Positions 27,750-38,446 of a DNA stretch of 64,000 nt are shown here, in pieces. Positions within the stretch are counted from its first letter, which is position 1. Each line of letters opens with the position of its first letter. This DNA is from Lachnospiraceae bacterium (GTDB taxonomy: Bacteria > Bacillota > Clostridia > Lachnospirales > Lachnospiraceae): the NCBI GenBank assembly GCA_017938315.1, contig JAGBBV010000010.1, positions 1-64,000 of the forward strand, given 5' to 3'. The notes beneath the pieces are model-generated. The model saw nothing but the letters and a program-made list of their open reading frames with translations, searched no databases and was not told where the DNA came from. Position numbers and translations under genes: made by a program.

Positions 27750-29675
27750 ATGAGTAAAGTATTAGTAAAATTGGAAAAATGTGTGGGTTGTAATGCATGT
27801 GTCAGGGCATGTCCCGTTGAAGACGCCAATCGCATCGTCAAAGATGAAAACGGCACTCTTACCATTGAAATTGACACCGACAAGTGTATTAAATGCGGTG
27901 CCTGCATTAAAGCTTGTAACCATGGCGCAAGAGGTTTTGAGGATGATACACAGCAATTTCTCAACGACTTGAAAAAGGGCGAGAAAATCGCCGTTATCGT
28001 CGCTCCTGCTTTTAAGGTTTCCTTTGACAAGGATTGGCCGGCTGTTCTTCAATGGCTACACGACGCCGGTGCCTACGGTGTTTATGATGTCTCTTACGGT
28101 GCTGATATTTGTACTTGGGCACACCTCCGTCATCTGGAGAAAAATCCCGGTGCCAAAGTAGTGACCCAGCCCTGTGCAGTTATCGTAAACTATGCTCAAA
28201 AACATAAACACGAATTACTGGATTACTTATCCCCCATCCATAGCCCTATGCTGTGCGAAGCTGTTTACTTACGTAAATACCAGAATTTCAACGGAAAAAT
28301 TGCCGCTCTTTCTCCGTGCATCGGTAAAGGTGATGAGTTTTCCCAGACCGCCCTTGTACAGTATAATGTGACCATGGATCAATTGAAACAATATTTCCAA
28401 AGTAACAATATTAATCTTTCCAATATTAAGGTCGAAAAAGGATTTGATTTGGAACCAGGTATGGAAGGTGCTATTTATCCCAAACCCGGCGGTCTTGCTG
28501 CCAATTTACTCTATCATAATCCGACTGTATCAATTCTCGGAACAGAAGGACCCCAGCGGGTTTACCATGAACTCGAAACTTATTTAAAATCTTCTGACGA
28601 GGATAAGCCGGCTGTTTTGGATGTACTCAACTGTGAATATGGTTGCAATGAAGGCCCCGCAGTAGGAAAGGAATATAATTTTATCCGTGCCAACGCAATT
28701 ATGCATTCGTTACAGCAAAGCACTCACGCCGAACGTCTAAGCGCAACCAAAAAAGGACGCGATAAACAATTTGCTTATTTTGACAGCACATTGAAAATAG
28801 AAGATTTCCTGCGCACCTACAAACGTGAAAACGTAAATAAAATAGTTGTTACCAAACAGGACCTTGACCTCGCCTATGAACGTCTCGGAAAGAAAACGGA
28901 AGCAGAACAAAACTTTGATTGTCACGCATGCGGATTCAGCAGTTGTAAAGAGATGGCTTGTGCCATTGCAAGAGGCTTAAATCTCCCGGAAAACTGTCAC
29001 CAGTATGCCATGGCCCAAATGGAAAAAGAACAGGAAGCAATTGCTCTTGCAAATGCACAGGTGCAGGAGATGACTACAGACCTTCAAAAAATCGTAGCAG
29101 ATTTAAATCAACACATGAATGAAGTACATATAGAAGCTGAAAATATCAGTTCTGCCGGTAATGCAAGCAAAGATGAGATGAACAAACTTATCACATACAT
29201 GAACAGTTTGTCGGCATTAAATACTGAAATTCTGGAAGCTATGAAGAATATTAATGTCAGTGTGGATAACTATAGGGAAATGTCCCAAAATGTCGAAAAG
29301 ATTGCACAAAACATTAATCTACTCTCACTGAATGCAAGTATTGAAGCTGCCAGAGCCGGAGAATTAGGACGTGGATTTGCCGTAGTTGCCTCCAACATCC
29401 GTTCTTTATCAGAAGAATCAAAGGGCTCTGTTGCAAATGCACAGGCAAACGACTCTGCAATCAATCAGGTTATGTCAGATGTCAACGATACTCTGGGTAA
29501 CTTTACGGCTAATATCAATTCGCTTACCGATGCAATTAACGAAACCATCGCGGGAATCCAAGAAATTTCATCCCGCAGTGAATCCATAAACGGATCCGTT
29601 GAACAGATTGCCGAAATTGCAAGTACCATTACCACCATGATTGAAAAAACAAACCAGTTATCAAATTCTATTTAA
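27750..29675 (+). CDS. Soluble [FeFe]-hydrogenase-like redox module fused to a chemoreceptor signalling domain
   Basis: The 641-residue protein has three parts. Two [4Fe-4S] ferredoxin motifs lie at residues 11-56 ([12 protein letters not shown] and [12 protein letters not shown]). A hydrogenase large-subunit-like domain spans about 75-320, with H-cluster Cys equivalents C142 (TQPC), C190 (SPC), C295 and C299 (NCEYGC). A four-Cys FeS motif ([10 protein letters not shown]416) comes next. A chemotaxis signalling domain spans about 440-641, with its tip at [20 protein letters not shown]. There is no membrane segment. The usual TSCCP reads TQPCA, so the proton-transfer Cys is missing; a sensor rather than an efficient hydrogenase is likely. 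It follows nhaC closely and ends at a strong terminator. It probably senses H2 or redox state and signals to CheA. Confidence 0.85.
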
Positions 29676-30065: not shown

Positions 30066-30094
30066 TTGACCTTGAAAGTCTTGTAACATATAAT
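30066..30094 (+). promoter_or_regulatory. Promoter of the split pyruvate formate-lyase operon
   Basis: TTGACC (30066-30071) and TATAAT (30089-30094) are separated by 17 nt, nearly consensus. The leader is about 65 nt long and ends in the strong ribosome binding site AGGAGG at 30150-30155. This agrees with high expression of PFL. Confidence 0.8.
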
Positions 30095-30165: not shown

Positions 30166-32205
30166 ATGAGACCAGAATGGAACAATTTTGTAGCAGGCAA
30201 GTGGGAGAACGAAGTTAACGTACGTGACTTCATTCAGAAAAACTATCATCCTTATGATGGCGATGAATCCTTCTTGGCAGAAGCTACACAGGACACCAAA
30301 GACTTATGGCAGATGGTACTTGAATTACAGAAAAAGGAACGTGAAGCAGGCGGCGTACTTGATATGGATACAAAGGTTGTATCTACTATTACATCACACG
30401 CTCCCGGTTATCTTGACAAATCCAAAGAAAAAATCGTTGGATTCCAGACAGATAAGCCCTTCAAGCGTTCTCTTCAGCCTTACGGCGGTATCAGAATGGC
30501 AGAAAAAGCTTGTTCTGACAACGGTTATGAAGTAGATGCTGAAATCAGCGAATTCTTCTCAACCCACAGAAAGACACATAATGCAGGATGTTTCGATGCT
30601 TACAATGAAGAAATGAGAGCTTGTCGTTCTTCTCACATCATTACAGGTCTTCCTGATGCTTACGGACGTGGACGTATCATCGGTGACTACAGACGTGTTG
30701 CTTTATACGGTATCGACTTCTTAATTCAGGACAAACTTGCTCAGAAAGAATCTACAGGACGTGTTATGACAGATGATGTTATCCGTCTTCGTGAAGAAAT
30801 CTCTGAGCAGATTGTTGCTTTGAAGATGATGAAGGAAATGGCAGCATCTTATGGTTGCGATATTTCCAAACCCGCTACTAACGTTAAGGAAGCTATCCAG
30901 GCTACTTACTTTGGTTATTTATGTGCAGTTAAGGAACAGAACGGTGCTGCTATGTCCCTTGGACGTACATCTACATTCCTTGATTGCTACGCAGAAAGAG
31001 ACTTAGCTAACGGAACATTTACAGAATCTGAAATTCAGGAATTCGTTGATCACTTCATCATGAAATTACGTTGCATCAAATTTGCCCGTACACCTGAATA
31101 CAATCAGATTTTCGCAGGTGACCCTGTATGGGTAACTGAATCCTTAGCAGGTGTTGGTGTTGACGGACGTCACATGGTAACAAAGATGAGCTTCCGTTAC
31201 TTACACACATTGACAAACTTAGGTGCCAGCCCTGAACCTAACTTAACAGTTCTCTGGTCACCCAGACTTCCTGAAAACTTCAAGAGATACTGTGCAAAGA
31301 TGTCCATCTTAACATCTTCCATCCAGTATGAAAACGATGAACTTATGAGACCTGACCACAGTGATGACTACGGTATCGCTTGTTGTGTATCTTCCATGGT
31401 TATCGGTAAGGAAATGCAGTTCTTCGGAGCACGTGCTAACCTTGCTAAATGTTTACTTTACGCTTTAAACGGCGGTGTAGACGAAGTTACCAAGAAACAG
31501 GTTGGTCCTAAATATCGTCCTGTTGAAGGTGATGTTCTTGACTATGATGACGTTATGAGCAAATTCATGGATATGGTTGAATGGCAGGCTGATGTATATG
31601 TAAATACACTTAACATCATTCACTATATGCATGACAAATACTGCTATGAAAGAGCTGAAATGGCACTTCATGACAGAGACGTTAAGAGATACTTCGCAAC
31701 AGGTGTTGCAGGTCTTTCCATCGTAGCTGACTCCTTATCAGCTATTAAGTATGCTAAGGTTGAAGTTATCAGAGATGAAGACGGCGTTATCGTTGACTTC
31801 AAGACAACAGGTGACTTCCCTAAATACGGTAACGATGATGACCGTGTAGATAGCATTGCTCAGGAAGTTGTTACTAAGTTCATGACAGCTATCAGAAGAC
31901 ATCATACTTACAGAAACGGTGTTCCTACAACATCCATCCTTACAATTACTTCCAACGTAACATATGGTAAGGCTACAGGTAACACACCTGACGGACGTAA
32001 GAAAGGACAGCCTTTTGCACCCGGTGCTAACCCGATGCACGGACGCGATACTCATGGTGCAGTAGCTTCCTTATCTTCCGTTTCCAAACTTCCTTTCAAG
32101 GATGCACAGGATGGTATTTCCAATACCTTCACTATCATCCCCGGAGCTCTTGGTAAAGAAGATCAGGTATTTGCAGGTGATATTGAAATCGATTTAAACA
32201 AATAA
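30166..32205 (+). CDS. pflB: Pyruvate formate-lyase core subunit lacking the glycyl-radical domain
   Basis: A 679-residue protein that matches formate acetyltransferase from its N-terminus ([20 protein letters not shown]) through the catalytic Cys pair C406-C407 in [20 protein letters not shown]. It continues to [20 protein letters not shown] and then ends [15 protein letters not shown] with a TAA. In ordinary PflB (about 740-760 residues) the glycyl-radical domain follows this point in the same chain. Here it is encoded by a separate gene at 32466. The stop is followed by a full ribosome binding site for the next gene, so this is not a simple frameshift. The reaction is pyruvate plus CoA to formate plus acetyl-CoA. 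The core alone cannot carry the radical. Confidence 0.93.
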
Positions 32206-32240
32206 GAGCAAATTGACATCTTTCCTTAAGGAGGTACGCT

Positions 32241-32444
32241 ATGGACGAGAAAACAATGATTGATGACCTTGTAAAAATGCTTGATTCCGGCATGGCTATG
32301 GGTGTAGGACACATCAATGTTGACACCGATTCTACAAGCGATAAATCTAAAGAAGTTCAGACTATGGGATGCTCGGATTGTTCCAGAACTCCTCTGGCTT
32401 GTAGCGTTCCTACCTTACAGGACGGATTAGACGATTTTCACTAA
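32241..32444 (+). CDS. Small protein resembling the first part of a glycyl-radical domain, with Cys-rich tail
   Basis: A 67-residue protein with AAGGAGG 6 nt upstream of its ATG. Residues 6-30 (MIDDLVKMLDSGMAMGVGHI and NVDTD) align without gaps to the start of the 81-residue radical protein ([20 protein letters not shown]), with nine identities by eye. The part that would hold the RVSGYA glycine loop is absent. Instead the tail carries C44, C47 and C54 (GCSDCSRTPLAC) and an acidic end LQDGLDDFH. It lies between the PFL core and the radical subunit in one operon. It might dock on the core as a placeholder or redox switch. I do not know a described family. Confidence 0.75.
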   Translation: MDEKTMIDDLVKMLDSGMAMGVGHINVDTDSTSDKSKEVQTMGCSDCSRTPLACSVPTLQDGLDDFH

Positions 32445-32465
32445 AATAACAGGAGGTAAACAATC

Positions 32466-32711
32466 ATGGCAGCAGTAAGTGCAGCACAGGTAGATAACCT
32501 GGTTTCATTATTAGATGGTTATTCAGTAAAAGGTGGACATCACCTTAACGTTAATGTATTAAACAGAGAAATGCTTTTAGATGCTCAGCAGCATCCTGAA
32601 AACTATCCTCAGCTTACAATCCGTGTTTCCGGATACGCTGTTAACTTCATCAAGTTAACACCCGAACAGCAGGCTGACGTTATTTCCCGTACATTCCATG
32701 AATCCATCTAA
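32466..32711 (+). CDS. Free-standing glycyl-radical domain of pyruvate formate-lyase (GrcA-like)
   Basis: An 81-residue protein with AGGAGG 9 nt before the ATG. It corresponds to the C-terminal 80 residues of Pfl[21 protein letters not shown], then EMLLDA and the radical loop [12 protein letters not shown] with G56 as the radical site. It ends [14 protein letters not shown]. In E. coli a similar small protein (GrcA/YfiD) rescues oxygen-damaged PFL. Here the domain is the only one encoded in the operon, because the core gene lacks its own. It must assemble with the core and be activated by PflA (37691-38446). Confidence 0.93.
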
Positions 32712-32739: not shown

Positions 32740-32773
32740 AAAACTCCGGTTGATTATTCAACCGGAGTTTTTT
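32740..32773. terminator. Bidirectional terminator after the pfl operon
   Basis: AAAACTCCGGTTGA (32740-32753) pairs with TCAACCGGAGTTTT (32758-32771) around the loop TTAT, then TT. The convergent XRE gene ends inside the loop. Confidence 0.88.
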
Positions 32774-33752: not shown

Positions 33753-35615
33753 TTATTTTCTCTCTACTTTTTTATTTTTCTTTTGCGTATACATTCTTTT
33801 ATCTGCCATCTGTATACATGCCATAAGTGGCAAATTCTTCTCTTCATTAATACAGCAAATTCCAAAGCTTGCTCCAAATGGGTATTTTTCTTTAACAAGT
33901 TCCGCCTCTTCGCTAATTGCCTTATTAAATAATTCCGAGAACTCTAAGTGGCGGTCTCTGCTATCGGAAACCAAAAGCATTACAAATTCGTCACCACCAA
34001 TTCTGGCACACACTTCTTCTTCATTTGCAAGTTTCTGCATTACCCTCGCCAGTCGCGTCAGCGCATCATCTCCCATGGCATGTCCAAAGGTATCATTAAT
34101 ATATTTAAGTCCATCCATATCGATACTGACAATGCTCAAATAGCGCTTATCTTCTTTGGTAGTTTTATATAATTCTCTCAGTTTGCTTTCATAGCCTCTC
34201 CGGTTATAAATGCCGGTCAGTGTATCCAGTAAATACATCTTTTTGATTTCTTCCAAACCAATTACTTCCCGGTGCATTGAGGCATCTTCTATGGCATTCG
34301 CAAGAGCCACTAAGTATGCCTGCAGGAACGAATTCGGCCATTCATTCTCATTAAAGATAACCGCTACATATCCAACGCATTTACTTTGGCGATGAACCGA
34401 AAACATCATATACATCTGTGATTCATCTGTTTCAAGATATTTAGAAGGTAATAATTCCCCCCTAGGAAACATCTCTTCGCACTCCACAGTACGTTGATTA
34501 TCAGAAAAGATTCTTTTTAGAATCATATTTTGGGAATAAAATGTGTTTTCCAAGCGGCTATTTTCATCGCACAAACATATATAGAATTTTTTATACCCAA
34601 TATTCTTTGCATAGTTTTCTGCTACACGCAGATACTCTTTCTCTTCATAGACACCCTGTAACTCAGTAGTCATAAAAACAATTCTTTGGATTTGTGTTTG
34701 CTGTACATATATCTGATGTAACATATCCGCCCACTCTTTATATGCACTTTGGACACCGCATCCGCAACTTCTTCCAAAAACCAACTCTGTCTGAATTTTT
34801 TCTTCCACCGGCTGTTCTCTATGATTTACTAGATTATCAATCATATCAACAGCTTTCTGTGCCATCTTGTTAAAAGGAACATTAATGGTCGTTAATGATG
34901 GAATATTCTGTCTCGCTTCCACGGTATTATCATATCCTGATACACAAACTTGCTCCGGAATAGATATTCTTCTCTTTTTCAACTCTTCACAAACAGAAAA
35001 AGCCATATAGTCATTTGAACAGATAATAGCCTGTGGATAAGTACTGCGTCCTTCCATAAACCAGTCTACAGCTTCTTTCCCTTTATCACGCCAGAAATTA
35101 CCATTAAACACCATATGCTCTGTAACTTCTATATCCGCTTCCTTCATGACGTTTAAGAAACCTTTATATCTGGCCTGCGCATCCGGTGCTTCTGCTTTTC
35201 CTTTCATAAAGCAAATATCCCGGAATCCATGTTCATAAACAAAGTGTTTTGTTATGTCTTCCATCGCTTTCACATCGTCAATCACTACACTGTAAAAGCC
35301 TTGTTTCCCTGCCCTTAAGTAAACTACCGGACACTTAGCATATTTCTTTAAACGCTCTTCAAGAATCCCACTCATTCCGGCAATGTCAAAAGTGTCGTCA
35401 CATACAATGATGCCATCAAGAGCATCAAAAACAGCAAGCTCTGTAGAACTGATTTCTCCTTGTGTATACATGATATCATTGCCGTAGGAACCATATGATG
35501 CCAGCACGAAAACGTCATAATTTAATTCTTTTGCTCTTTGATAAATAGATGCCAATGCCACCTTTGCATAAGTGGCAGTTGCTTCACCCATATATACTCC
35601 GATTCTTTTTCTCAT
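33753..35615 (-). CDS. Cytoplasmic diguanylate cyclase with LacI-type sensor domain (copy 1)
   Basis: A 620-residue protein. It starts directly with a LacI/periplasmic-binding-type sensor (RIGVYMGEATATYAKVALAS; FRDICFMKGKAEAPDAQARY; residues about 1-285) without the usual HTH or a signal peptide. A CGC motif (RSCGCGVQ) and a middle region of about 150 residues follow, then a GGDEF domain at about 455-615 with an intact RIGGDEFVML active site. No RxxD inhibitory site is seen upstream of it. It should make c-di-GMP in response to a small ligand, perhaps a sugar. The ATG at 35615 has GGAGG 7 nt upstream. It is a tandem paralogue of the next gene. Confidence 0.85.
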   Translation of the reverse strand: MRKRIGVYMGEATATYAKVALASIYQRAKELNYDVFVLASYGSYGNDIMYTQGEISSTELAVFDALDGIIVCDDTFDIAGMSGILEERLKKYAKCPVVYLRAGKQGFYSVVIDDVKAMEDITKHFVYEHGFRDICFMKGKAEAPDAQARYKGFLNVMKEADIEVTEHMVFNGNFWRDKGKEAVDWFMEGRSTYPQAIICSNDYMAFSVCEELKKRRISIPEQVCVSGYDNTVEARQNIPSLTTINVPFNKMAQKAVDMIDNLVNHREQPVEEKIQTELVFGRSCGCGVQSAYKEWADMLHQIYVQQTQIQRIVFMTTELQGVYEEKEYLRVAENYAKNIGYKKFYICLCDENSRLENTFYSQNMILKRIFSDNQRTVECEEMFPRGELLPSKYLETDESQMYMMFSVHRQSKCVGYVAVIFNENEWPNSFLQAYLVALANAIEDASMHREVIGLEEIKKMYLLDTLTGIYNRRGYESKLRELYKTTKEDKRYLSIVSIDMDGLKYINDTFGHAMGDDALTRLARVMQKLANEEEVCARIGGDEFVMLLVSDSRDRHLEFSELFNKAISEEAELVKEKYPFGASFGICCINEEKNLPLMACIQMADKRMYTQKKNKKVERK

Positions 35616-35639
35616 ATGCAAACCTCCACAAGAGAAATT

Positions 35640-37517
35640 CTAACCTTCGCTAACTGACGCCTCTTTCTCCTTTTTATTCTTCTTTTGCATATACATTCTC
35701 TTATCAGCCATTTGTATACATGCCATCAACGGCAAGTTCTTTTCTTCATTAATGCAACAGATTCCTAAACTTGCTCCGAATGGATAAGGTTTTCCAAAGC
35801 GTTCCGCTTCTTCCTTAATTGCCTTATCAAACAAAGCAGGAAAATTCAGGTGACGGTCTCTGCTCTCAGATAGTAGTAGCATTACAAATTCGTCCCCGCC
35901 AATTCTTGCACACACTTCATCTTTATCGGCCAACGACCTCATTACTATTGCAAGACGGGCCAGTGCCTCATCTCCTTCTGCATGACCATAATTATCATTG
36001 ATGTATTTAAGCCCATCCATATCGATACTGACAATGCTTAGGTAACGTTTGTCATCGTTTAAATTATCATATAATTCTCTCAGTTTATTTTCGTATCCTC
36101 TTCTGTTGTAAATTCCTGTAAGCGGATCCAACATATATATCTTTTTAATTTCTTCCAATCCCAATACTTCCTGATGCATTCTGGAGTCTTCAATGGCATT
36201 GGCAAGAACTACAAGGTATGCTTGCAGGAATGAATCCAGCCATTCCTTTTCATCAAGGATAATTCCCGTATAACCAAAGCACTTGGTTTTGTAGTGAATG
36301 GAAAACAAGAAATAAGCCTCCGGTTCATCCTCATTAAGAAATGTTTTAGGAAGCAGTTCACTTCTGCAAAACTTTTCCTCACACTCTGTTGCACGTTGGT
36401 TTGCTGTCATTATCCTCTTAAGAATCATGTTCTTGGAGTAGAATTCATTTTCTCCTCTGCTCTCCTCATCACAGAAGCAGAAACACATCTTCTTATGGTT
36501 AATATTCTTAGCATAATTTTCAGCAATACGCAGATAATCCTTTTCCTCGTAGGTTCCCTGCAGTTCTGTGGTCATAAATACAATCCTCTGTATCTGTGTA
36601 TGCTGAATATAAATCTTACGTGACATTTCCGGCCACTCTGTATACTCTTCCTGCACACCACAACCGCAGCTTTTCCTGAACACCATTTCCGTTTGCACTT
36701 TTTCAACTCTTTCCTGTTTTCTTCCATTGCAAACGTTATCTATCATTTCGACTGCTTTAATTGCCATCTTATCAAAAGGAATATTGATGGTTGTCAAAGA
36801 AGGGATATATAATCTGGCTTCTTCCAAATTATCATACCCTGAAACACATACTTCTTCCGGCACTGATATTCCCCGTTTCTTTAACTCTTCACATACTGAA
36901 AGTGCCATAAAGTCATTAGAACAAATAATAGCCTGTGGATATTTTTCCCGGCCTTCCATAAACCAATCCACAGCTTCTTTTCCCTTGTCACGCCAATAAT
37001 TCCCTTGGAAAACCATATGCTCGGTAACACCGATTCCCGCTTCATCCATTACATTTAAAAAGCCCTGATAGCGGTCTTTGGCATCCTGGTACTCTTTTTT
37101 TCCTTTCATAAAGCAAATATCCCGGAATCCATGGTCATAGACAAAGTGTCTGGTCACATCCTCCATGGCCTTAACATCATCTATCAATATATTATAAAAT
37201 TTTTCCTTAGGTACTCTCAAGTATACTACCGGGCATTTTGCTTCTTTTTTAAGACGCTTTTCAAGTGCCACATCCATACCTACAATATCAAAGGTATCAT
37301 CGCACACAATAATTCCGTCCAGTGTTGACAAATCAGGCAATTCTATCATGCCCATCTCACCTTGGGCATACAAAATATCGTCACTATATAGCCCAAAGGA
37401 TGCAAAGACAAAAACATCATAATTAAGCTCTTTGGCTTTTGTAAAAATTGCATCCAGCACAACTCTTTGGTAAGTTGCCGCTGCCTCTCCAATAAAAATT
37501 CCGATTCGTCTTCTCAT
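35640..37517 (-). CDS. Cytoplasmic diguanylate cyclase with LacI-type sensor domain (copy 2)
   Basis: A 625-residue paralogue of the downstream gene, alike along its whole length: RIGIFIGEAAATYQRVVLDA; FRDICFMKGKKEYQDAKDRY; RKSCGCGVQ; RIGGDEFVMLLLSESRDRH. The most variable stretches are in the sensor half, so the two copies may see different ligands. There is no HTH and no membrane segment. The ATG at 37517 has GGAGG 8 nt upstream. It is divergent from pflA and only 25 bp before copy 1, so the two are cotranscribed. Confidence 0.85.
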   Translation of the reverse strand: MRRRIGIFIGEAAATYQRVVLDAIFTKAKELNYDVFVFASFGLYSDDILYAQGEMGMIELPDLSTLDGIIVCDDTFDIVGMDVALEKRLKKEAKCPVVYLRVPKEKFYNILIDDVKAMEDVTRHFVYDHGFRDICFMKGKKEYQDAKDRYQGFLNVMDEAGIGVTEHMVFQGNYWRDKGKEAVDWFMEGREKYPQAIICSNDFMALSVCEELKKRGISVPEEVCVSGYDNLEEARLYIPSLTTINIPFDKMAIKAVEMIDNVCNGRKQERVEKVQTEMVFRKSCGCGVQEEYTEWPEMSRKIYIQHTQIQRIVFMTTELQGTYEEKDYLRIAENYAKNINHKKMCFCFCDEESRGENEFYSKNMILKRIMTANQRATECEEKFCRSELLPKTFLNEDEPEAYFLFSIHYKTKCFGYTGIILDEKEWLDSFLQAYLVVLANAIEDSRMHQEVLGLEEIKKIYMLDPLTGIYNRRGYENKLRELYDNLNDDKRYLSIVSIDMDGLKYINDNYGHAEGDEALARLAIVMRSLADKDEVCARIGGDEFVMLLLSESRDRHLNFPALFDKAIKEEAERFGKPYPFGASLGICCINEEKNLPLMACIQMADKRMYMQKKNKKEKEASVSEG

Positions 37518-37606
37518 ATGTAAACCCTCCAAAAAAGAATCCCTCTTTATAATTTTACTCTTATTAAAAAGGAATTACAACCGCTATTTCCCATATCCAT
37601 GATTTA

Positions 37607-37690: not shown

Positions 37691-38446
37691 ATGCAAGGCA
37701 GAATTCATTCACTGGAAAGTTTCGGAACCGTCGATGGTCCCGGCACAAGGTTTGTTGTGTTTGTGCAAGGATGCCCCATGCGCTGTGCCTATTGTCACAA
37801 TCCCGACACATGGGCGATGAATGGCGGTACATTAATGGATCCGGAATACATTTACGAACAATACAAAAGAAATGAAAGTTTTTATAAAAACGGCGGAATT
37901 ACTGTAACCGGCGGTGAGCCTCTTATGCAGATTGACTTTTTAATTGACTTATTTACCATTGCTAAAAAGGACAACGTGCATACTTGTATTGACACTTCCG
38001 GCATCGCTTATAATGAAAACAACGCGCCCCTTATTGAAAAGTTAGATAAGCTTATGGCGTTAACAGATTTGGTTATGCTTGATATCAAACACATTGACCC
38101 CGAAAAGCACATGGAACTGACATCCCAACCTAATGAACAGATTTTAGCATTTGCGAAATACCTGAATAAAAAAAATGTGGATATGTGGATTCGCCATGTA
38201 GTTGTTCCCGGCCTTACCGATGATGACAAGTATCTTTTTGATTTAGGCTATTTTATCGGACAGTTCTCTAACTTAAAAGCATTGGACGTGCTCCCTTATC
38301 ACACCATGGGAGAAAACAAATACGAGAAGCTTAATATGACTTATAAATTAGCAGGTGTTCCTGCTATGGACAAGAAAAAAGTAGTCGAAAAGAAAGAAGT
38401 GATTCTTGATGGCATCCGCAAGCGGCGCATGGAAATGACATCATAA
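37691..38446 (+). CDS. pflA: Pyruvate formate-lyase activating enzyme (radical SAM)
   Basis: A 251-residue protein with the radical-SAM motif C-x3-C-x2-C in GCPMRCAYCHNPDTW. It also has the GGE motif ITVTGGEPLMQ and the start MQGRIHSLESFGTVDGPGTR typical of PFL activases. It uses S-adenosylmethionine and a [4Fe-4S] cluster to place the radical on Gly56 of the separate glycyl-radical subunit. ATG 37691 has GAGAGGAG 6 nt upstream; in-frame codons to 37607 lie in the promoter. It is about 5 kb from the PFL genes rather than adjacent. Confidence 0.95.
   Translation: MQGRIHSLESFGTVDGPGTRFVVFVQGCPMRCAYCHNPDTWAMNGGTLMDPEYIYEQYKRNESFYKNGGITVTGGEPLMQIDFLIDLFTIAKKDNVHTCIDTSGIAYNENNAPLIEKLDKLMALTDLVMLDIKHIDPEKHMELTSQPNEQILAFAKYLNKKNVDMWIRHVVVPGLTDDDKYLFDLGYFIGQFSNLKALDVLPYHTMGENKYEKLNMTYKLAGVPAMDKKKVVEKKEVILDGIRKRRMEMTS

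What the first reader, a model, noticed from the sequence alone, without database searches (positions are those of the whole stretch)
30166..32711. Pyruvate formate-lyase split into a core and a free glycyl-radical domain
The 679-residue core has the catalytic Cys pair but stops exactly before the glycyl-radical domain, which is encoded by its own gene 260 bp later (RVSGYA, G56). All three operon genes have strong ribosome binding sites, so this is a designed split and not a sequencing frameshift. A detachable radical subunit would allow replacement after oxygen damage and control of activity by subunit stoichiometry. GrcA/YfiD in E. coli is the closest known parallel, but there it supplements an intact PFL. 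I do not recall a description of this obligate split, though I could not search.
Basis: partly seen in the sequence, partly recalled or inferred. Interest (0 to 1): 0.85.

Follow-up and report, generated by a model that had tools for sequence, protein, structure and literature searches.

The report
Three-piece pyruvate formate-lyase in gut bacteria
Many gut bacteria of one family make a key fermentation enzyme in separate pieces: a body without its radical-carrying end, that end as its own small protein, and often an unnamed cysteine-tailed protein that imitates half of the end and may act as its placeholder.

Summary
Window 30166-32205 encodes a pyruvate formate-lyase (PFL) core that ends where the glycyl-radical domain should begin; 32466-32711 encodes that domain as a free 81-residue protein. 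No other PFL was found in the genome. It is not a frameshift: 114 of 299 sampled family genomes, about one per genus, carry a split locus, and 106 of these showed just one PFL match. NCBIfam already holds the radical protein as "GrcA3", and two PDB chains are PFL cores without the domain, so the split is not wholly unknown. Nine searches of an openly licensed library showed no description.

Its first half is homologous to the docking half of the radical domain; its second half replaces the glycine loop with a cysteine tail. It is in all 80 near relatives kept. Core tails carry cysteines only where MID is absent: 0 of 72 loci with MID, 36 of 42 without. My reading: a glycine-less decoy radical domain that holds the empty core and helps seat GrcA3. 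Homology and swap are shown; docking and function are inferred, and structure prediction failed.

The parts
30166..32205 (+). PFL core (split pflB), 679 aa, lacks the glycyl-radical domain; ends ...[12 protein letters not shown]
   Evidence: TIGR01255 model positions 2-665 of 744, PF02901 E 3.3e-216; only PF02901 match found in the genome
31381..31386 (+). codons of the catalytic cysteine pair C406-C407 (E. coli C418/C419)
   Evidence: IACCVSS motif located; equivalence from established knowledge of PFL
32241..32444 (+). MID: 67-aa protein; residues about 2-32 copy the docking helix and strand of the radical domain, residues about 38-60 form a cysteine tail (C44, C47, C54) in place of the glycine loop
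   Evidence: hhalign of 149 MIDs (100 after its own filtering) against GrcA3: probability 95.6, E 1.2e-8 over 32 columns; present in 80 of 80 near loci; median dN/dS 0.09 in 24 usable pairs of 51; no Pfam or PDB match, and in NCBIfam only a weak GrcA3 match (E 0.075) to its N-half
32466..32711 (+). GrcA3: free glycyl-radical domain, 81 aa
   Evidence: NF038360 157.5 bits (curated cut-off 158), E 6.5e-47; PF01228 E 1.1e-22
32631..32633 (+). codon of the radical glycine G56 (RVSGYA)
32740..32771 (+). probable intrinsic terminator after the three genes
   Evidence: -21.7 kcal/mol, z -6.6; the simple scan did not list it, I think because the stem runs into the T run
37691..38446 (+). pflA, PFL activating enzyme (radical SAM), 5 kb downstream
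   Evidence: TIGR02493 293.9 bits, the only match over the cut-off in the genome; gene ends read

Best explanation
A working PFL made of parts. The core supplies the barrel and the catalytic cysteines. GrcA3 supplies the glycyl radical in trans: PflA makes the radical on G56, and GrcA3 sits in the empty radical-domain slot, as E. coli GrcA/YfiD does on oxygen-cleaved PFL, but here obligately. The third part is a cysteine tail, either fused to the core's C-terminus or carried by MID. MID is a radical domain that kept its docking half and lost its glycine loop. I propose that MID docks in the slot of the empty core, puts its cysteines at the mouth of the active site, protects the empty core and serves as the recognition element that brings in and seats GrcA3, then yields its place. 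Shown: the parts, their homology, their conservation, the absence of another PFL match, and the swap between MID and a cysteine tail on the core. Inferred: docking, protection, hand-over and any redox role of the cysteines. Confidence: about 0.85 that the split enzyme is the functional PFL, about 0.6 that MID docks on the core, about 0.35 that its cysteines act as a redox-gated plug rather than mainly as a recognition element. The number below is for the statement as a whole.
For: (1) Core plus GrcA3 cover the PFL model, and no other PFL was found in the genome. (2) All 136 short-frame GrcA3 hits that one search listed were examined: 114 lie beside a PFL core, in 114 different genomes of 299. 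Of these 114, 106 showed one TIGR01255 match, one (G022, core cut by a contig end) none, 7 more than one. (3) MID's N-half is homologous to the radical domain's docking half, and MID is under purifying selection. (4) Mutual exclusion: of 72 split loci with MID none has a cysteine in the core tail; of 42 without MID, 36 have two or more (Fisher p 9e-24, relatedness not corrected). The labels A, B, C need at least 11 changes on the core tree, in which 41 of 133 inner branches are firm. (5) The cysteine element belongs to the split: of 34 intact PFLs examined (14) only L226 has two or more cysteines there, and it looks like a re-fusion of core, cysteine tail and GrcA3 (core beside L035_A, support 77-92; radical domain beside L196_B, support 78). 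(6) PMC8683613 (sections 5 and 7 part 1): E. coli tPFL, which like this core lacks residues 696-733, shows no measurable YfiD binding and 32-fold less activation, yet is as active as wild type once activated. A natural split should need something to make good that loss, and MID's first half overlaps the start of that stretch (alignment). (7) PMC12338860 (passages): E. coli PflB-G734A makes formate, at an intermediate level, when GrcA is present, so a trans radical protein can suffice in vivo.
Against: No structure: both AlphaFold jobs gave pLDDT 37-39, so docking is untested. 6 of 114 split loci have neither MID nor two cysteines in the core tail (L039, L127, L128, L149, L150, L162), so the element is not strictly needed; in L127, L149 and L150 a pflA-like gene lies between core and GrcA3. 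Two of 72 MIDs (L021, L140) lack the second part of the cysteine motif, and only 17 of 36 fused tails match the full motif. The fused tails lack the docking half, so docking by mimicry cannot be the whole function. No expression data. The 22 extra GrcA3 copies could serve other enzymes. One search scored at most three candidates per genome and capped its list of matches.
Confidence: 0.5

Rival explanations
1. MID and the fused cysteine tails are recognition elements only: they raise the affinity of GrcA3 or PflA for the core, as residues 696-733 of E. coli cPFL do for YfiD, with no plug or redox role.
For: PMC8683613: loss of 696-733 abolishes measurable YfiD binding but not catalysis. The fused tails have no docking half, so they need not enter the slot. 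The three loci with a pflA-like gene between core and GrcA3 have neither element.
Against: Does not explain why the most constant residues are cysteines followed by P-T/N-L, nor why MID also copies the docking strand, which would compete with GrcA3.
Confidence: 0.28
2. MID is a thiol or metal-binding regulator (oxygen or redox sensor) that acts on the enzyme or on PflA without occupying the radical-domain slot.
For: Cysteines are the most constant part: 72 of 72 family MIDs have at least two. The fused tails keep cysteines without the docking half.
Against: The docking half of MID is conserved as well (GHxN in 71 of 72) and homologous to the radical domain. Cysteine number and spacing vary, which is loose for a metal site.
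Confidence: 0.15
3. MID is a fading remnant of the original radical domain with no function.
For: It is a shortened radical domain between the two genes; a few loci lack it.
Against: Median dN/dS about 0.09 with synonymous sites near saturation (24 usable pairs of 51); own ribosome-binding site; invariant residues across 26 diverse MIDs; complementarity with the fused tail.
Confidence: 0.03
4. The split locus is a spare-part system and an intact PFL elsewhere is the real enzyme, or the split is a sequencing or assembly frameshift.
For: Seven of 114 split genomes have a second TIGR01255 match (G060, G085, G119, G132, G265, G284, G296); in G060 the contig begins inside the core, so its two matches may be one gene in two pieces.
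Against: No intact PFL found in this genome; 106 of 114 split genomes show one match and one shows none; the same organisation in near loci from many assemblies.
Confidence: 0.03

Closest known systems
E. coli GrcA/YfiD with oxygen-cleaved PFL (and phage T4 Y06I)
   Same: A free glycyl-radical domain activated by PflA and used in trans by a PFL body; NCBIfam equivalogs TIGR04365 and NF008341 match the window protein at 102-104 bits
   Different: There it repairs an intact PFL; here no intact PFL was found. YfiD is 127 aa with a disordered N-terminus; this one is 81 aa without it. I saw no MID counterpart in what I read of PMC8683613 (abstract, sections 5 and 7 part 1, passages).
NCBIfam NF038360, autonomous glycyl radical cofactor GrcA3
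   Same: The window protein matches it over positions 2-78 of 78 (157.5 bits). In 30 of the 30 loci that one search returned for other genomes a PFL core lies upstream, so this named family looks in practice like the radical subunit of split PFL
   Different: The name implies a spare part; the window protein lies 0.5 bit under the curated cut-off
PDB chains 38la_A (687 aa) and 38lb_A (739 aa), 'Formate acetyltransferase'
   Same: PFL cores whose sequences show no radical domain; 38lb runs on for about 44 residues that include cysteines
   Different: Organism, title, date and whether the truncation is natural are not shown by the tools; neither chain was matched by GrcA3 (E up to 0.001) or MID (E up to 10)
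Canonical intact PFL (TIGR01255, E. coli PflB)
   Same: Core aligned over its length; catalytic cysteine pair; radical loop RVSGYA
   Different: One chain of about 750 residues against two or three chains here

Membership tests
PFL1 (TIGR01255, formate C-acetyltransferase) | score over the curated cut-off | tested here: met
   1106 bits against 994.2 for the core alone
PFL1 (TIGR01255, formate C-acetyltransferase) | adjacent catalytic cysteines | tested here: met
   C406-C407
PFL1 (TIGR01255, formate C-acetyltransferase) | glycyl-radical domain in the same chain | tested here: not met
   core ends at model position 665 of 744; domain encoded by a second gene
PFL1 (TIGR01255, formate C-acetyltransferase) | pyruvate plus CoA to formate plus acetyl-CoA | not testable with these tools
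   needs an assay
GrcA/YfiD spare-part cofactor (TIGR04365, NF008341) | score over the curated cut-off | tested here: not met
   101.7 against 170 and 104.2 against 145 bits
GrcA/YfiD spare-part cofactor (TIGR04365, NF008341) | works beside an intact PFL that it repairs | tested here: not met
   no intact PFL found in the genome; it may still work like GrcA
GrcA3 (NF038360) | score over the curated cut-off of 158 | tested here: not met
   157.5 bits, so a borderline miss; 100 of 299 family genomes have a match over it
GrcA3 (NF038360) | full-length match, short free radical domain | tested here: met
   positions 2-78 of 78, 81 aa
Glycyl-radical domain (PF01228), for MID | score over cut-off and radical glycine loop | tested here: not met
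   no Pfam match up to E 1; only the N-half is homologous, and the sequence has no RVSGYA loop

The most novel reading that the evidence does not exclude
A natural three-component glycyl-radical enzyme. A glycine-less decoy of the radical domain, MID, occupies the active-site entrance of the empty core, guards it with cysteines that react to oxygen or to the catalytic cysteines, and is exchanged for the radical-bearing GrcA3, so that activity is set by competition between a decoy and a live radical subunit. In other lineages of the same family the guard has moved onto the core's own C-terminus.
Probability: 0.33. Interest if true: 0.87.

Novelty: new variant of a known kind. Interest (0 to 1): 0.7.

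Why it matters
PFL is a central enzyme of anaerobic sugar fermentation, and this family (most named relatives are labelled Lachnospiraceae) is a major group of the gut. If about four in ten of its sampled genera run PFL as separate pieces, annotation and metabolic models that look for full-length pflB may misjudge them, and the radical protein filed as a 'spare part' is the real subunit. It also gives a natural test of a long-standing question in glycyl-radical enzymes: how the radical domain leaves its slot to meet the activase and returns, and what keeps the empty enzyme safe. A conserved decoy of that domain would be a new way to control a radical enzyme.

Tried and rejected
Frameshift or assembly error: rejected. 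Intact PFL elsewhere in the genome: not found. Fusion by programmed frameshift or read-through: no dedicated test; the genes have their own ribosome-binding sites and lie in differing relative frames in different loci, so I do not favour it.

Structure prediction: two AlphaFold jobs on natural DNA read through the stops between the genes, so that core and MID (L087) or core, MID and GrcA3 (L076) form one chain. Both failed (pLDDT 37.1 and 39.0), probably because the alignments held only 22 and 19 near-identical rows. A Foldseek search of the second model gave E. coli PFL and YfiD first, with TM-scores under 0.5, so no usable geometry; 38la and 38lb are not among the 50 rows shown.

Re-fusion of intact PFLs: in the core trees seven intact PFLs (L225-L231) lie inside the split clade, but the AU test does not reject all split cores as one clade (p 0.263), and the radical-domain tree keeps six of the seven with other intact PFLs (few columns for 150 rows). 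Only L226 is kept as a likely re-fusion. Two short rows (L199, L224) were left out of the tree, and further rows were dropped before those (104 rows; 68 rows).

A common neighbour for the 22 extra GrcA3 copies: none shared by all; two groups of seven loci each share upstream frames.

Script errors found: a regular expression missed MID in L088 and L116 and the core of L083 (it has an inner stop), and mis-sorted four family loci (L122, L132, L149, L150); these were corrected by eye. One GrcA3 pair gave dN/dS 1.69, probably an ungapped misalignment; the median is 0.10.

Literature: nine searches that ran of the openly licensed library. In their listings (capped; one search matched 4,786 papers and listed 20) and in the passages read I saw no obligate split PFL and no MID. 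Most subscription papers are not in that library. PMC11528403 and PMC12150765 were seen as passages only and do not mention it there.

Full report
What is in the window. The three genes at 30166-32205, 32241-32444 and 32466-32711 lie head to tail; each has an AGGAGG-type ribosome-binding site (read), and a strong hairpin followed by T's stands after the third at 32740-32771. A promoter-like site lies at 30066-30094 (11 of 12 matches), but such sites are no more frequent here than in shuffles. The first gene is a PFL core that satisfies the PFL model (1106 bits, cut-off 994.2) while ending at position 665 of 744. The third gene covers positions 665-744. The catalytic cysteines are C406-C407 and the radical glycine is G56 of the small protein. 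The genome (G000, 40 contigs, about 97% complete) has one PF02901 match, this core, one activating enzyme over the PFLA cut-off, 5 kb downstream, and a second free GrcA3 on another contig, downstream of a Crp-type regulator gene.

How common it is. One search kept the 80 best of at least 587 relatives in genome contigs (90-97% identical over the best segment); most titles say Lachnospiraceae, and among the named ones are Parablautia intestinalis, P. muri and Acetatifactor muris. MID is present in 80 of 80, GrcA3 in 78; the two others are cut by a contig end (L070, L086). One core, L083, carries an inner stop (1 of 79 checked). The 22 are extra copies in genomes that also have the split locus. 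One search found a PFL-1 match in 222 of the 299 genomes, scoring at most three candidates per genome. Of the 114 split genomes, 106 showed one match, one (G022, core cut by a contig end) none, and 7 more than one. In a sample of 398 genomes of the phylum, which holds only a handful of this family, full-length MID appeared in the window's genome and one other of the same family. The short-frame GrcA3-like hits listed outside the family were three: one looks like a PFL parted by contig ends (G325), one like a PFL broken within a contig (G495; sequence not inspected), and one is a separate split enzyme described under things noticed.

The middle protein. MID is 67 residues here. An alignment of 149 MIDs compared with GrcA3 gives hhalign probability 95.6 and E 1.2e-8 over 32 columns at the start, that is the docking helix and the strand before the glycine loop. 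The rest has no such match; in its place stands a tail whose consensus is GC-x-DC...LAC-x-VPTLH.G.D. In an alignment of 26 diverse MIDs the invariant residues are G23, H24, C47, C54 and P57, numbered on the window protein. Over the 72 family MIDs, 72 have at least two cysteines, 71 have GHxN, and 70 have the full tail motif; L021 and L140 end after the first cysteine pair. MID evolves under purifying selection: median dN/dS 0.09, but only 24 of 51 pairs gave a finite dS, since synonymous sites are near saturation; GrcA3 0.10 (49 pairs), core 0.05 (50 pairs). Pfam and PDB gave no match, and NCBIfam gave one weak hit to its first half, GrcA3 at E 0.075.

The swap. The 114 split loci fall into three kinds: 72 with a separate MID gene (A), 36 without MID but with two or more cysteines in the core's own C-terminal tail (B, for example ...DLDIDRIEECGNQACNIPNIMESIDNE), and 6 with neither (C). 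None of the 72 type-A core tails has any cysteine. The classes were sorted by a script that uses cysteine count to tell B from C, so the informative comparison is A against the rest: 0 of 72 against 36 of 42 (Fisher p 9e-24; relatedness is not corrected for). On the core tree the labels A, B and C need at least 11 changes, so the swap probably happened repeatedly, though many branches are weak. Type-B tails lack the docking half, and 17 of 36 match the full motif. Of 34 intact PFLs looked at (14), one has two or more cysteines before the radical domain: L226, whose core groups with a split relative at support 77-92 and whose radical domain groups with another at 78, as expected of a re-fusion that kept the tail.

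Mechanism. That a free radical domain can serve PFL is established for E. coli. PMC8683613 (abstract, sections 5 and 7 part 1, and passages) shows that tPFL, cut at residue 695, is as active as wild type once activated, also with truncated YfiD, but that loss of residues 696-733 cost measurable YfiD binding and 32-fold in activation with full-length YfiD. PMC12338860 (passages) shows that a PflB without its glycine makes an intermediate amount of formate in vivo when GrcA is present. The natural split core resembles tPFL and GrcA3 resembles truncated YfiD, so something should replace the missing recognition element. MID's first half overlaps the start of that stretch, and its gene sits between the two. 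I therefore commit to this: GrcA3 is the obligate radical subunit, and MID (or the fused tail) is a placeholder and recognition element for the empty core, with the cysteines possibly guarding the active site. The last step is the weakest. The fact that fused tails do without the docking half, and that six loci do without both, shows that the element is helpful rather than indispensable.

Limits. No structure could be predicted. The tree topology within the split group is weakly resolved, and the AU test leaves open whether the nested intact PFLs are re-fusions. Organism names of the family sample are not given by the tools; the window's genus is inferred from genome G264, of the same genus, whose contig C33 has the length of the Parablautia intestinalis contig RAYQ01000023.1. 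There are no expression or protein data here.

Known or new. NCBIfam holds the radical protein as GrcA3, and two PDB chains are PFL cores without the domain, so the split is being met by others. In the listings of the nine paper searches that ran and the passages read I saw no description of it, and MID has no name in the libraries searched. I file the whole as a new variant of a known kind: a PFL with a trans radical subunit and a new third part.

Noticed in passing
L273 373-2670 and 2760-3020 (G499:C22, another family of the same phylum): What looks like an independent split in a different, PFL2-like glycyl-radical enzyme: a 765-residue frame ends before the radical domain, and a separate frame, whose ATG at 2760 follows GGGGGTG, encodes a radical domain (RVAGYSAYF). 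A transporter-like frame precedes and a sugar-binding-protein-like frame follows (names recalled). One genome only, so a frameshift is not excluded.
   Followed up: partly
G000:C39:12370-12597 (L001) and 21 further loci: 22 split genomes carry an extra GrcA3 away from the core (21 with MID, 1 with a cysteine tail). In the window's genome it follows a Crp-type regulator gene, and seven loci share a related upstream frame. Possibly a regulated spare copy.
   Followed up: partly
L127, L149, L150: In three split loci a pflA-like gene (named by eye) lies between core and grcA3, and neither MID nor a cysteine tail is present.
   Followed up: no
L226 (G096:C26): Intact PFL with a cysteine motif (CGCEEVTC) in the linker before a GrcA3-like radical domain; looks like a re-fusion of a split enzyme.
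   Followed up: partly
L083 (JAFUKH010000096.1): One in-frame stop inside the core of an otherwise normal split locus; decay or assembly error not distinguished.
   Followed up: no
window 33753-35621 and 35640-37532, minus strand: Two tandem paralogous proteins with a LacI-like sugar-sensor region and a GGDEF-like region (domain names recalled, not scanned) between the PFL genes and pflA.
   Followed up: no
window 27750-29675: Protein that starts with ferredoxin-like cysteine clusters and ends like a chemoreceptor signalling domain (recalled, not scanned); an unusual combination just upstream of the PFL genes.
   Followed up: no
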